From Spirilliplanes yamanashiensis (GTDB lineage: Bacteria; Actinomycetota; Actinomycetes; Mycobacteriales; Micromonosporaceae): a stretch of 64,000 bases of DNA. Shown here piece after piece: positions 48,124-52,016 of this stretch. Position 1 is the stretch's first letter; every line of letters begins with the position of its first letter. Both the position numbers and the translations under genes were made by a program. The notes beneath the pieces were generated by a model. The model saw nothing but the letters and a program-made list of their open reading frames with translations. It was not told the origin of the DNA and did not search any database. The stretch spans positions 62,001 to 126,000 of the forward strand of contig NZ_BOOY01000027.1 in the NCBI RefSeq assembly GCF_016863475.1. Reading direction: 5' to 3'.

Positions 48124-48705
48124 ATGAACTGGAAGGCAGTTTCCTGGCACACCCCGACCCTGTCGTGGCCCCGCGCGACCCCCGCCCGCCGCCTGCTCAT
48201 GGCGGCGCGGGGGCCGCGGCTGCCCGGGGAGGCCGCCGACGCCGAGCTGTGCCGCCTCGCGGCGGTGCACGCGGCGCGGCGCGCCGGCGGCAGGCTCGGT
48301 GACACCCTGGCGGTCGCGGAGAAGCTGCTCGCCGACCCGGCCGCCCACCCCGTCGTGCTGACGTTCCTGGAGAACCTGCAGCACCTCGTCTCGCACGACG
48401 ACGCCGCATTCACCGGCGAGCGCGGCGTCGTGGCGGGCCTCGGGCAGCGCTCCGCGGCGGCGTGGTCGGCGCTGCACGCGTACTGGCGCGCGGTCGAGGT
48501 GTGGTGCCGGCGCACCGGCGTCCCGCTGGACTCGGCGGCCGACCTGCTCGCGGTCCGCAACGACCGCATGCGCACCCTGCTGTGGACGACGAATCGCACC
48601 CTGCCGGCGGGCCGGCGCATCGGCCACTCGCACGCGGTGCGCTACGAGCGGGCGGGCGGCCCGCCGCTGGCGGGTCAGCCGCGGGCGGCGGCCGCGGGCG
48701 GCTGA
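48124..48705 (+). CDS. Hypothetical protein (193 aa), convergent with macro-KAP gene
   Basis: Not recognised. Largely helical: AELCRLAAVHAARRAGGRLGDTLAVAEKLLAD, HPVVLTFLENLQHLVSHDDAAF, SAAAWSALHAYWRAVEVWCRRTG, and a basic C-terminal GRRIGHSHAVRYERAGG. No signal peptide. ATG taken because an upstream GTG at 48106 lies in a spacer; weak AGGA upstream. Its last 31 bp overlap the convergent macro-KAP gene. It lies 30 bp after the copper oxidase gene, so may belong to that operon. Confidence 0.6.
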   Translation: MNWKAVSWHTPTLSWPRATPARRLLMAARGPRLPGEAADAELCRLAAVHAARRAGGRLGDTLAVAEKLLADPAAHPVVLTFLENLQHLVSHDDAAFTGERGVVAGLGQRSAAAWSALHAYWRAVEVWCRRTGVPLDSAADLLAVRNDRMRTLLWTTNRTLPAGRRIGHSHAVRYERAGGPPLAGQPRAAAAGG

Positions 48706-51700
48706 CCGGCCGCCGGCCCGGCCCGCCGGCCGGGCGGCGGCGCGGCGGCGGGCAGCAGCGAGCCGGGCAGCGGGAACGGCAGCAGGTTCACCGCGGGCGA
48801 CGAGCGCAGCTCGGTGAGCTGCCGCCAGGCCACGTACGGGTTGACGCCGAACGTCTGGCGGACCCGGGCGAGCTGGTCCAGGCACCCGCCGCCGGTGGCG
48901 CGCAGCGCGGCGCCCAGCCGGTCGGCGGCCGCGTCGGTGCCCACGTCGAACAGCTCCAGCAGCGTGCGGCAGTAGTAGAAGTAGCCGAGCAGCTCGACCG
49001 TGAGGCGGGACAGCTCCCGGCGCTGCGGCAGGTCCTGGGCGTCGGCGCCGAGCAGCGGGGGCAGCCGGTCGAACGGCTGCAGCCAGTGCGGGTCGCGGAA
49101 ACAGGGGCCCGCCCCGCGCAGGCCGGCGCCGTCGCAGGTGTCCAGGTCGCGCAGGCAGCGCAGCACCTCGGACACGTCGGGCTCGACGACGATGGGCCGG
49201 ATCGCCGAGCTGATCGCCGTGATCTTGCCGGCCAGGTCGCGGTGCACCACCTCCCGCGCGACGGCGGCCAGGTCGCGGGCGGCCCCGGCGCCCGCGGCCG
49301 GACCGGTCCCGCCGGCCGGGGCGAGCATCCGGTCGGCGGCGCGCAGCAGGTCGCGGGGCAGCCCGCCGGACTGGCAGTAGGCCAGGGACAGGAACGGCAG
49401 CGGCACGTCGATGACCCGCTTGTCCAGCATGGACAGCGCCTGGTGGTGGTCGAGCAGCGGGGCGCGCAGGATCTCGTCGAAGGCGCTGTCGAAGACGTCG
49501 CGGAACGGCAGCCCGCGCCGCTCGAAGCGGGCGATGGCGTCCTCCGACATCGACAGCAGGAAGCAGACGCCCCGGGCGTCGAGGATGCCCTTGATCTCGT
49601 TGAGGAACGCGCGCGCCTCCTCGGGAGACTCGATCTTGTCGAGTTCGTCGATCGTCACCAGGGCCGGGCCGCGCGCCGGGAGCAGGTGCTTGATGCCCTC
49701 GACGATGTCCGGCACGCCGAGCGGCAGCTCGGCCTCCGTGGTGCTGCCGGTCAGCGCCGCCTCCGCCGCCACCGGCAGCCACGGCCCGGCGGCGAGCTTG
49801 GCGGTGGTGGTCCAGCCGGACACCACCGACGTCTGGTAGCGCAGCCGGGCCAGGGCGCGGGCCGCCGTCCGGCTGTGCTCGTCCAGCGGCGGCGCGGCGG
49901 ACGTGCGGGCCTCGGCGGCGACGAGCCGGTGCCAGCGCACCCCGGTGGCGGCCGCGGCGCTGCCCGCGGCCGCGAGCAGCCCGCCCGCCACCAGCGGGAC
50001 GGTGAGCGCCGCCGCGCCCGGCACCAGCAGCAGCGCGGCCCCGCACAGCGCCGCGCCGAGCTGGGCGGTGGCCACGCCCGCGACGGTGCTGGCGTCCCGG
50101 CCGGCTGCGGCCAGCAGGGCGAGGCGGTCGGTGTCGGCGAGGCTCTCGTCGTCCTGCGGGGGCCGGCCCAGCAGCCACCGCCCGGCGCGCCGCGCGCTGT
50201 GCAGCAGCACGGACGTGCCGAGGGCGGCCACCAGCAGCGCCGTGCCGGCCGCCGCGGGCGCGGCGAGCACCCCGGCGCCGGCCAGCAGCGCCACCGCGCC
50301 GCACGCGGCGGCCGCCAGCAGCACCCGCACGGGGCCGGGCAGGCGCCAGCCCAGCCGCTTGCGGGCCAGCAGCAGGCCGTCCGCGCCGGCCGCGGCGGCG
50401 CGTTCGGCGTGCCGCTGCACCAGCAGCACGGCGAGCGCGGCCACCGCCCCGGCGAGCAGGACGGCCCCGGTGGTGCCCGGGCGGTGCGCGGCGGCGACGC
50501 CGGGCGCGGCCGTGGCGAGCACCACCACCCCGGTCACCAGCACCAGCAGCGGGGCCAGCACCATGCCGGCGAGCCCGGCGGCCCGCACGTGCGCGGCGCG
50601 CGGCGGCGGGGCGAGGGGTTCGGCGGGCGCCGACGGGTCGCGCCGGATGACGTCCTGGCACACCTTGCCGTACAGCCACAGCAGGAACTCGCGCGGCGCG
50701 TACCCGGTCGGCGCGGGCGCCTCGATGACCAGCCCGCCGCCGGTCCACTCGTGGGTGGCCATCGTCAGCAGGGTGCTCTTGCCGCAGCCGCGCGGACCGG
50801 CGACGCCGAGGCTGGCCCGGGTCTCCGCGGACGCCGCCGCCAGCACCGCGAGCAGGTCCCGGTGCGCGTCGGTGTGCACGATCTCGGTCAGCTCGGGCGG
50901 CCGGCGCAGGCCCCGGGTGTCGGCCGGCGGCAGCGGGCGGCGGTCGTGGGCGCGCAGCCCGTCGCGGCTGCGGTCGACGGCCTTGCGGGTCCGCCGGTTG
51001 ATCTCGGCGCGCAGCAGCGGCAGCAGCGCGTTGCGCACCACAGCCTGGCGGGCCTGGTCCTCGGTCACCGCGCGGCGCACTTGCAGGTCGCGCCAGCGCG
51101 GGCTGGCGTCGAGGCGGGCGCCGATCTCGGTGCTCAGGTCCGCCAGCAGCCGCTGGTCGCGGCCCTTCGTGCCAGGCAGGCCCGGCGCGGCCGGCCCGGC
51201 GCCGGACTGCAGCGCGCTGCGGTCCAGCTCCAGCATCTGCACGAGCTGGGCGCGCAGTTCCTCGGCCTCGGCGTCGAGGGCGCGCAGCGGCGCGAGCTCG
51301 CTGCCGCACGAGCGCCACAGCTCGTCGTCGTCGACGTCGACCAGCCGCCGCCGCTCGGCCTCCGGCATCCCGATCCGGTCCGCCTGGGCGACGACCGCGT
51401 CGTCGCGCACGGCCTCGTCGCGGGCGGCGGAGAACAGCTCGTGGTACGACCAGGCGTGCTCGACGGCGCGGGCCGACACCTCGTCGCGCACGATGAAGAC
51501 GAGCCACCGCGGCCCGGCGGGCAGGCGCCGCAGCGCGGTCAGCGCGGCCGGCAGCTCGGCCACCGCCACGTCCGCCGCCGCCAGCCCCACCACCCCCGCG
51601 CCGAGCAGCGGCAGGCCGAGCGCGTGCAGGTGGTGCCGCGCCGCGAGCCGCACGGCGGCCCCGGTCGAGCGGGCGACGGCGTCCAGGCTGGCCGTCGCGT

Positions 51701-52016
51701 CGCCCCGGGAGCCGCGGGCCGTGTCGTGCGGCGTCGCCACCAGCACGTGCCGCAGCGCCGGCCGGTCGGCGCCGCGGGCCGGCACGTCGAGGATCAGCGG
51801 GCGGTCGGGCGTCACCGACCGCAGGGCCGGCACCGCCATGCCCAGGTGGGCGAAGGCCGCCGTGCCCAGCAGGCCGAGCGTGGCGGCGCCGGTGGACACG
51901 ACCAGGGCGTCGAGGTCCAGCTCCCACGGCGTGCTCGTGACGGCGATCTCGACGGCGGCGCCGTGCGCCGTGCCGAGCGTCCGGCGGCCGGTCGCGGGGG
52001 GTGCCGTGACGGTCAT
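48675..52016 (-). CDS. Macro-domain/KAP-type P-loop membrane NTPase (1113 aa)
   Basis: N-terminal region (about 10-165) matches a macro domain: VVSTG near residue 40 and HALGLPLLGAGVVGL at 131-145, close to the ADP-ribose-phosphate loop. A helical linker (200-370) follows. The P-loop domain has Walker A GPRGCGKST (407-415) and Walker B ALVTIDELDKIE (785-796). Between them lies a ~370-residue insertion with hydrophobic segments at 481-500, 513-533, 563-605 and 652-690. Membrane helices inside the P-loop domain are the hallmark of KAP NTPases. C-terminal 320 residues helical with several Cys. Function unknown; combinations of sensor and KAP domains occur in conflict/defence systems. No strong ribosome site at the ATG. 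Confidence 0.75.
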   Translation of the reverse strand: MTVTAPPATGRRTLGTAHGAAVEIAVTSTPWELDLDALVVSTGAATLGLLGTAAFAHLGMAVPALRSVTPDRPLILDVPARGADRPALRHVLVATPHDTARGSRGDATASLDAVARSTGAAVRLAARHHLHALGLPLLGAGVVGLAAADVAVAELPAALTALRRLPAGPRWLVFIVRDEVSARAVEHAWSYHELFSAARDEAVRDDAVVAQADRIGMPEAERRRLVDVDDDELWRSCGSELAPLRALDAEAEELRAQLVQMLELDRSALQSGAGPAAPGLPGTKGRDQRLLADLSTEIGARLDASPRWRDLQVRRAVTEDQARQAVVRNALLPLLRAEINRRTRKAVDRSRDGLRAHDRRPLPPADTRGLRRPPELTEIVHTDAHRDLLAVLAAASAETRASLGVAGPRGCGKSTLLTMATHEWTGGGLVIEAPAPTGYAPREFLLWLYGKVCQDVIRRDPSAPAEPLAPPPRAAHVRAAGLAGMVLAPLLVLVTGVVVLATAAPGVAAAHRPGTTGAVLLAGAVAALAVLLVQRHAERAAAAGADGLLLARKRLGWRLPGPVRVLLAAAACGAVALLAGAGVLAAPAAAGTALLVAALGTSVLLHSARRAGRWLLGRPPQDDESLADTDRLALLAAAGRDASTVAGVATAQLGAALCGAALLLVPGAAALTVPLVAGGLLAAAGSAAAATGVRWHRLVAAEARTSAAPPLDEHSRTAARALARLRYQTSVVSGWTTTAKLAAGPWLPVAAEAALTGSTTEAELPLGVPDIVEGIKHLLPARGPALVTIDELDKIESPEEARAFLNEIKGILDARGVCFLLSMSEDAIARFERRGLPFRDVFDSAFDEILRAPLLDHHQALSMLDKRVIDVPLPFLSLAYCQSGGLPRDLLRAADRMLAPAGGTGPAAGAGAARDLAAVAREVVHRDLAGKITAISSAIRPIVVEPDVSEVLRCLRDLDTCDGAGLRGAGPCFRDPHWLQPFDRLPPLLGADAQDLPQRRELSRLTVELLGYFYYCRTLLELFDVGTDAAADRLGAALRATGGGCLDQLARVRQTFGVNPYVAWRQLTELRSSPAVNLLPFPLPGSLLPAAAPPPGRRAGPAAGQPPAAAARG

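What the first reader, a model, noticed from the sequence alone, without database searches (positions are those of the whole stretch)
48675..52016. Macro-domain fused to a KAP-type membrane NTPase
A predicted ADP-ribose-binding macro domain precedes a P-loop whose Walker A (407-415) and Walker B (785-796) are separated by 370 residues with membrane segments, the KAP hallmark. The combination suggests sensing of ADP-ribose or NAD-derived signals coupled to a membrane NTPase, as in bacterial conflict systems. I know of no characterised example of this architecture, which I cannot verify here.
Basis: partly seen in the sequence, partly recalled or inferred. Interest (0 to 1): 0.6.

Follow-up and report, generated by a model that had tools for sequence, protein, structure and literature searches.

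The report
Fast-evolving macro-domain membrane NTPase family
An actinobacterium carries a single large protein that joins an unusual ADP-ribose-type binding fold (a macro domain) to a KAP-like energy-using membrane module; relatives keep the pairing with a second kind of KAP module, can look like single-gene insertions and change fastest in the macro part, which suggests a sensor of attack or stress, although nobody has tested it.

Summary
The architecture is real. Window 48675-52016 is one minus-strand gene (1113 aa): an N-terminal macro domain (residues ~8-196), a helical linker, and a KAP-type P-loop NTPase with six hydrophobic segments between Walker A (407-415) and Walker B (785-796). The macro fold is firmly shown (profile E 5.6e-13; AlphaFold pLDDT 91; Z ~21 to Af1521). 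"ADP-ribose-binding" is not shown: both Asn of the NAAN motif are lost in 9 of 9 first-set members but present in 28 of 28 ordinary macro domains. Other positions are kept instead (Pro30-Trp31 in 29 of 29).

The same macro subfamily is fused to two distinct KAP-type NTPases: the query's (4 of 354 genomes of its family) and a PifA/QatA-like one (34 of 346 genomes of another family have the macro domain; 19 of 20 loci fetched for a check are unbroken fusions). One such locus has an empty site in 3 of 3 non-carriers read. There the gene diverges faster than its flanks, the macro domain most of all. No defence neighbourhood was found.

Best reading: a single-gene, ligand-sensing membrane NTPase of conflict type, working like TM-macro ThsA plus a KAP engine. 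New variant of a known kind; function untested.

The parts
48675..52016 (-). Whole gene: macro domain - helical linker - KAP-type NTPase - helical C-terminal region, 1113 aa plus stop; start codon inferred
   Evidence: two relatives align along the whole length at 46% and 44% identity
51429..51995 (-). Macro domain, residues 8-196
   Evidence: profile vs PDB E 5.6e-13; AlphaFold pLDDT 90.8; VIA Z 20.8, rmsd 2.0, 167 aligned to Af1521 1hjz
51924..51938 (-). TSTPW, residues 27-31: Pro30 and Trp31 invariant in 29 of 29 family members; replaces the GDIT stretch of ordinary macro domains
51888..51899 (-). VSTG, residues 40-43: position of the NAAN motif; both Asn absent
   Evidence: 9 of 9 family vs N,N in 28 of 28 ordinary macro domains; 29-member set V25 I2 L2 and G28 E1
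51726..51728 (-). His97, kept in 23 of 29 family members
51585..51611 (-). PLLGAGVVG, residues 136-144: phosphate-binding loop 2 of macro domains, retained
50823..51428 (-). Helical linker, residues 197-398
   Evidence: AlphaFold secondary structure
50772..50798 (-). Walker A GPRGCGKST, residues 407-415
49938..50573 (-). Six hydrophobic (putative membrane) segments, residues 482-693, inserted between Walker A and B
   Evidence: helices in the model but low pLDDT there
49734..49826 (-). Predicted beta-hairpin, residues 731-761, low confidence; contains the invariant residue W735
49629..49664 (-). Walker B ALVTIDELDKIE, residues 785-796; IDELDKIE invariant in 14 of 14
49473..49526 (-). FERRGLPFRDVFDSAFDE, residues 831-848: family signature downstream of Walker B
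49341..49370 (-). SGGLPRDLLR, residues 883-892: conserved motif, sensor-like (inference)
48804..49271 (-). Helical C-terminal region, residues 916-1071, no Pfam match seen

Best explanation
A stand-alone, membrane-anchored, ligand-regulated NTPase of the biological-conflict kind. The macro domain is a non-hydrolytic sensor (inferred): it keeps the macro fold and phosphate loop but has lost the Asn pair used for ADP-ribose handling and carries its own conserved set (Thr27, Pro30-Trp31, Ser41, Gly43, Gly48, His97, Gly141, Gly144), so it probably binds a nucleotide-type ligand other than plain ADP-ribose, or a modified protein. Ligand binding (inferred) switches the KAP P-loop engine, which sits in the membrane through its inserted helices, into an assembled state that disturbs or signals at the membrane: abortive-infection style, as proposed for TM-macro ThsA. 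Shown: architecture, fold, motif loss and retention, recurrence with two KAP types; in class-B relatives, an empty site and fast macro divergence. Inferred: the ligand, NTP hydrolysis, membrane insertion, assembly and the anti-phage or stress role.
For: Macro fold. KAP match 14 of 14 with inserted hydrophobic segments. The macro subfamily, found with a profile of three query-type domains (E 1.6e-21 to 1.7e-26 for four of the five further domains, 1.4e-5 for the fifth), is fused to a second KAP type that matches the PADLOC defence models QatA and PifA at E 4.4e-13 to 1.5e-22 (best match to each model) in 4 of 4. Conserved positions differ from those of ordinary macro domains. At one class-B locus no gene is called between the flanks in 3 of 3 regions read from genomes without it, and no remnant is found there; a carrier's macro-KAP is 72% and 67% identical to those of two relatives whose flanking proteins are 89-99% identical. 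The macro domain is the most divergent part in two genera (60% identity vs 82-92% for the Walker regions; dN/dS 0.60 and 0.55 vs 0.28 and 0.29 for the KAP core). Query-type KAPs also occur without a macro domain (13 of 13 frames of L002-L017 other than the two fusions have no match to the macro profile at E <= 10), fused to NACHT, and on Streptomyces/Nonomuraea plasmid records (15; one is 11.85 Mb and may be a chromosome). KAP proteins are reported in anti-phage defence: Tmn (PMC11846954, passage), QatA (PMC12424860, passage), KAP in place of STAND (PMC8195603, section). ThsA is a known membrane+macro effector (PMC11204291, abstract, one section and passages).
Against: No defence-gene neighbourhood: the four query-type loci share no neighbour, and PADLOC on 72 neighbours gives scattered matches with generic names, no system. 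PADLOC does not recognise query-type proteins: 0 families for three relatives, only E 0.0072 to PDC-S01 for the query. Class-B copies sit at one stable place in 7 loci of one genus and 4 of 6 of another, so not every copy is in a fast-turnover island. Macro dN/dS stays below 1, and the C-terminal part comes close to it in one genus (0.52 vs 0.60), compatible with relaxed constraint. In the second genus the gene is hardly more divergent than its nearest flank (79.6% vs 81.6%). The divergence and empty-site evidence comes from class B, not from the query's own gene.
Confidence: 0.42

Rival explanations
1. Membrane scaffold or housekeeping stress NTPase: the KAP module organises membrane proteins, much as Kidins220 does in animals (recalled), and the degenerate macro domain is only a protein-interaction surface.
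For: No defence neighbours; stable place within genera; loss of ADP-ribose residues; dN/dS below 1.
Against: Patchy: 4 of 354 genomes for the query type, 34 of 346 for the other; empty site; conserved positions in a fast-evolving domain; PifA/QatA similarity of the class-B NTPase.
Confidence: 0.25
2. Receiver of a TIR-made ADP-ribose derivative (Thoeris-like): a TIR protein encoded elsewhere makes the signal, the macro domain binds it, the KAP membrane part is the effector.
For: [quoted passage not shown] the window's genome has 6 TIR_2 matches and 30 of 34 carriers have at least one.
Against: No TIR among the 25 Pfam families shown (of 94) for the 72 neighbours of the query-type loci; TIR is also in 11 of 17 non-carriers; 4 of 34 carriers have none at this threshold; the NAAN Asn pair is missing and the adenine-Asp column holds Asp in only 2 of 9, whereas ThsA uses Asp83 and Asn114 for ADPR (that these columns correspond to ThsA's residues is inferred).
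Confidence: 0.15
3. Active ADP-ribosyl hydrolase coupled to a membrane NTPase, an antitoxin-like reverser of ADP-ribosylation.
For: Macro fold.
Against: Both Asn of the NAAN motif absent in 9 of 9 and, in the wider set, 29 of 29; no ADP-ribosyltransferase or sirtuin among the 25 Pfam families shown (of 94) for the neighbours.
Confidence: 0.05
4. A part of the surrounding polysaccharide or cell-surface cluster (PMT-like glycosyltransferase, galactose-oxidase-like protein, deacetylase, GH26).
For: It lies inside such a cluster in the window.
Against: The other three query-type loci share none of these neighbours; the gene is on the opposite strand to the genes on either side.
Confidence: 0.05

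Closest known systems
TM-macro ThsA effector of Thoeris (PMC11204291)
   Same: Macro domain joined to membrane segments; nucleotide sensing proposed to drive membrane clustering and cell death
   Different: ThsA is described as a TM plus macro protein acting with TIR-domain ThsB, and uses Asp83 and Asn114 for ADPR; here a large KAP NTPase is added, no TIR partner was seen nearby, and the corresponding columns (inferred) mostly lack those residues
KAP NTPases of phage defence: Tmn (PMC11846954), PifA (recalled), QatA of qatABCD (PMC12424860)
   Same: P-loop NTPase of the KAP family; Tmn is described as a KAP-family NTPase with two unusual transmembrane domains
   Different: No macro domain is mentioned in the passages read; the query's KAP belongs to a divergent branch with six inserted hydrophobic segments that PADLOC's models do not recognise
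KAP or STAND NTPases with exchangeable N-terminal effector domains (PMC8195603, PMC10907252)
   Same: Modular exchange of the domain in front of the NTPase; KAP reported as displacing STAND in conflict systems
   Different: Macro as the N-terminal partner is not mentioned in the passages read; effector-adaptor genes, lectin domains or DGR were not searched for here
Ordinary macro domains (MacroD, macroH2A, YmdB, TTHA0132)
   Same: Fold and loop-2 phosphate motif
   Different: NAAN motif lost, Pro-Trp motif gained, fused to a membrane NTPase

Membership tests
Macro domain (PF01661 fold) | Macro alpha/beta fold with ADP-ribose cleft | tested here: met
   Profile E 5.6e-13; AlphaFold pLDDT 90.8; VIA Z about 21. 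The single-sequence Pfam match is below the curated cut-off
Macro domain, ADP-ribosyl hydrolase or ADP-ribose reader of the NAAN type | Asn pair of NAAN, adenine-contacting Asp | tested here: not met
   Asn pair 0 of 9 vs 28 of 28 ordinary; Asp-equivalent column: Asp in 2 of 9 (Ser in the query) vs 27 of 28
KAP P-loop NTPase (PF07693) | Match to the KAP model above the curated cut-off | tested here: met
   Query 24.9 vs 20 bits; of the three other macro-bearing relatives of its type L007 passes, L006 and L068 do not; 14 of 14 at E <= 0.1
KAP P-loop NTPase (PF07693) | Transmembrane segments inserted between Walker A and Walker B | tested here: met
   Six hydrophobic segments, residues 482-693; hydropathy only. 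The founding paper was not held; the criterion is recalled and from its title as cited in PMC11846954
KAP P-loop NTPase (PF07693) | Profile similarity to the canonical KAPs of the class-B relatives | tested here: inconclusive
   hhalign A5 vs A6 aligns only 26 columns around Walker A, probability 10%
Thoeris, TM-macro type | ThsA TM-macro encoded beside ThsB TIR gene(s) | tested here: not met
   No shared neighbour among the four query-type loci; no TIR or Thoeris entry in the PADLOC tally (17 families, all shown) or in the 25 of 94 Pfam families shown for 72 neighbours
qatABCD | QatA with QatB, QatC (QueC-like) and QatD in one operon | tested here: not met
   No Qat component in the PADLOC tally of neighbours; the query itself does not match QatA
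Anti-phage defence system | Protection from phage in a host | not testable with these tools
   Needs phage challenge
Anti-phage defence system | Location among defence genes | tested here: not met
   for the four query-type loci; class-B loci were compared for shared neighbours only

The most novel reading that the evidence does not exclude
A new class of bacterial immune receptor: a single membrane protein in which a re-tooled macro domain (Pro-Trp cleft, no NAAN) reads an infection-made nucleotide or a modified phage or host protein and directly gates a KAP membrane NTPase, the same sensor having been coupled on separate occasions to two unrelated-looking KAP engines; in effect a nucleotide-gated counterpart of NLRs.
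Probability: 0.28. Interest if true: 0.82.

Novelty: new variant of a known kind. Interest (0 to 1): 0.58.

Why it matters
Macro domains and KAP NTPases are each known in bacterial conflicts, but their fusion was not found in the literature searched. If it works as proposed, ADP-ribose-type signalling would be wired straight into a membrane NTPase in one polypeptide. Its macro domain is present in 34 of 346 sampled genomes of one actinobacterial family, and the conserved Pro-Trp motif gives a directly testable question: what does this domain bind?

Tried and rejected
Rejected: reading the + strand (no protein sense); Pfam alone as a verdict on the macro domain (sub-threshold; settled by profile and structure); the polysaccharide cluster as functional context (not shared); a phage home for the query type (no match in 50,697 phage records; none of 142 candidate stretches confirmed in viral contigs).

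That is not evidence that the KAP fold is absent. A profile of all 14 query-type members against solved structures gave, besides macro matches, only matches to other ATPases around Walker A.

Dropped or partial: of the 34 carrier genomes, regions were fetched for 19 and for three (G592, G458 with two copies, G528); one search also held one genome, giving its 20 loci. L127 carries the macro domain in a frame that ends without the KAP part (496 aa), and L064 is likewise split over two frames; both are described, not mended. L065 and L067 dropped out of the neighbour comparison because the gene caller failed on them (23 of 25 loci used). Three low-scoring hits (at most 40.5 bits) look like ordinary macro domains and were not counted. 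The 28 ordinary macro domains are 28 of the 56 matches outside the window's genome, picked up by the family's own profile, not a random sample. For the empty site, four genomes without the gene were searched and regions of three read (G404 was not). Papers: PMC11204291 (abstract, outline, one section, passages); PMC9503650 and PMC8195603 (one section each, passages); PMC7159879, PMC10853773, PMC10907252, PMC11846954, PMC12424860 (passages only); PMC7824862 (term search, no occurrence); others only as listings, among them PMC7267882, which met the terms and was not opened. The founding KAP paper (Genome Biol 2004) was not held, so its criteria are recalled. PifA as a phage-exclusion protein, Kidins220 and the Micromonosporaceae placing of two named genera rest on recall.
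Full report
What is there. The gene occupies 48675-52016 on the minus strand and encodes 1113 residues. Six hydrophobic segments lie between them. Pfam finds KAP_NTPase above its cut-off and Macro below it.

The macro domain. A single-sequence search gave only a hint (2dx6, E 0.045). A profile of nine N-terminal domains (A4) hits TTHA0132 at 5.6e-13, PARP14 macro domains at 8.7e-11, YmdB, macroH2A and others. Of 78 sequences at E <= 1 the 60 shown are macro domain proteins, fusions carrying one, viral polyproteins with one, or designed hydrolases aligned to the same region (the content of the last two groups is recalled). AlphaFold2 on that alignment gives pLDDT 90.8 and pTM 0.87. 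Foldseek and VIA-align place it among macro domains; for example Af1521 1hjz has Z 20.8, rmsd 2.0, 167 aligned.

Its cleft is re-tooled. Aligned with 28 ordinary actinobacterial macro domains found by the same profile, the family lacks both Asn of NAAN (0 of 9 vs 28 of 28). The column of the adenine-contacting Asp holds Asp in 2 of 9 vs 27 of 28. The family has Pro-Trp at 30-31 in 9 of 9, where none of the 28 has it. Over 29 family members the most conserved positions are Trp31 (29/29), His97 (23/29), Trp189 (21 of 27 with a residue there), Pro30 (29/29) and Pro136 (28/29), followed by Pro73, Asp36 and others, with Ser41, Gly43, Gly48, Gly141 and Gly144 among the first twenty. Mean conservation of the loop-1/PW set is 2.44 and of loop 2 is 2.19, against 1.53 for the rest; 5 and 24 of 187 circular shifts reach these values, so the second is not remarkable. 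Which of these positions line the cleft is judged from the alignment with known macro motifs, not from coordinates. I infer a functional cleft with changed ligand preference and no hydrolase activity.

The NTPase. Fourteen aligned members of the query's NTPase type, the query included, all match Pfam KAP at E <= 0.1, and IDELDKIE is invariant. The type also occurs with other N-terminal regions (13 frames without any match to the macro profile) and fused behind a NACHT domain (L071, L072). The full-length model has mean pLDDT 72.4, with the membrane part poorly resolved. The canonical KAP NTPases of class B (below) barely align with it by profile (26 columns around Walker A, probability 10%), so the query's branch is divergent.

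Recurrence. Query-type fusions (class A) are in 4 of 354 genomes of the window's family, each in a different genus. Two are, by matching coordinates, Paractinoplanes rishiriensis and Asanoa ishikariensis, which makes the family Micromonosporaceae (recalled placing). A profile of three class-A macro domains found the same domain in front of a different, canonical KAP (class B) in 4 of 298 genomes of an order-wide sample besides the window's own genome (one of them with two copies, one of these split over two frames). Class B has the macro domain in 34 of 346 genomes of one family (f15) and, at high score, in 2 of 201 of another (f8). In a class-wide sample of 394 genomes only the window's own genome scores above 41 bits. 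All 20 class-B loci fetched carry the macro domain, and 19 of 20 have an unbroken fusion. The class-B NTPases match PADLOC QatA and PifA models at E 4.4e-13 to 1.5e-22 (best match to each) in 4 of 4; three class-A relatives match nothing there at E <= 0.01.

Genomic behaviour. The four class-A loci share no neighbour at E 1e-4. PADLOC on 72 neighbours gives scattered generic matches (17 families, 1-3 members each), and the commonest Pfam families are glycosyltransferases, methyltransferases, regulators and metabolic enzymes (25 of 94 families shown). Class-B loci: 7 loci of genus g76 share their neighbourhood, and so do 4 of 6 of genus g83; between these groups only broad families recur at differing positions (a 12-locus and a 6-locus cluster). 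At the shared g83 place the gene sits between a 90-aa gene and a permease gene beside uppS-recO-era-like genes (names inferred from sequence). In three regions read from genomes without it (one of the same genus, two of others) no gene is called between the flanks; in L151 and L152 the 90-aa gene and the permease gene adjoin, in L153 the 90-aa gene was not called and 348 bases lie between the next gene and the permease gene. A tblastn with a carrier's protein finds no remnant in these intervals. Against the reference carrier L063 the macro-KAP proteins of L131 and L136 are 72% and 67% identical, while their flanking proteins are 89-99% identical; L127 is closer (92.8%). The gene next to it in L063 and L127 (84%, one pair) is also fast. 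In genus g76 the contrast is weak: 79.6% for the gene, 81.6% for one adjacent gene, 84-96% for the other flanks with three or more comparisons. By domain, the macro part is the most divergent in both genera (59.9% and 60.2% mean identity; Walker regions 82-92%, region after Walker B 65% and 73%), with dN/dS 0.60 and 0.55 against 0.28 and 0.29 for the KAP core and 0.52 and 0.35 for the C-terminal part. That is weaker constraint or diversification, not proof of positive selection.

Interpretation. A fast-evolving input domain with conserved motif positions, an NTPase engine with membrane segments, single-gene organisation, patchy occurrence and an empty site fit a conflict receptor. Published parallels are TM-macro ThsA, whose macro domain binds ADPR and IAD and oligomerises to cluster its membrane parts (PMC11204291), the KAP-family Tmn system (PMC11846954), QatA (PMC12424860) and KAP replacing STAND in counter-invader systems (PMC8195603). 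The absence of defence neighbours, the stable position within genera and the lack of any functional test keep confidence moderate.

Novelty. No paper held both 'KAP NTPase' and 'macro domain' or 'KAP family' and 'macro domain'. Two broader searches returned five and two papers; in the four of these that were opened the passages do not describe the fusion, and one of the five was not opened. Coverage is limited to open-licence PMC papers, so the architecture may be listed in places not searched, such as domain databases or supplements.

Noticed in passing
L071:6706-9975, L072:5350-9795: Query-type KAP NTPase fused behind a NACHT NTPase in one protein: two P-loop engines plus hydrophobic segments (NACHT E 8e-9 and 6e-14). 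Open frames of 1440-1532 aa at query-type matches in five further genomes of the family (G083, G118, G129, G266, G359) suggest it recurs; their domains were not checked.
   Followed up: partly
window 48199-48705 (+): A predicted 168-aa gene running towards the macro-KAP gene and overlapping its 3' end by 31 bases; no Pfam family. Two class-B loci (L063, L066) also have a gene that overlaps the macro-KAP 3' end from the other strand.
   Followed up: partly
window 42546-62739: The gene sits inside a cell-surface polysaccharide-type region: PMT-like glycosyltransferase, galactose-oxidase-like protein, polysaccharide deacetylase, GH26, with glycosyltransferase families commonest among the neighbours tallied.
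   Followed up: no
L127, L064; also genomes G1011, G1194, G1145, G1198, G1216: Some macro-KAP copies have split, short or stop-containing frames, which may mean decay or assembly error.
   Followed up: no
L008:855-3494: A Streptomyces lilacinus relative lacks the macro domain and begins where the linker starts; the frame just upstream looks like a surface protein (inferred from sequence).
   Followed up: partly
Streptomyces and Nonomuraea plasmid records, 15: Relatives of the query-type KAP's C-terminal half lie on actinobacterial plasmid records (one of 11.85 Mb, perhaps a chromosome), mostly annotated hypothetical, some 'P-loop NTPase fold protein'; none covers 80% of the query.
   Followed up: no
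L007:8389-9687: The Asanoa copy lies next to what looks like selA: one of the 72 neighbours matches SelA at 2.1e-105; that it is this gene is inferred from its sequence.
   Followed up: no
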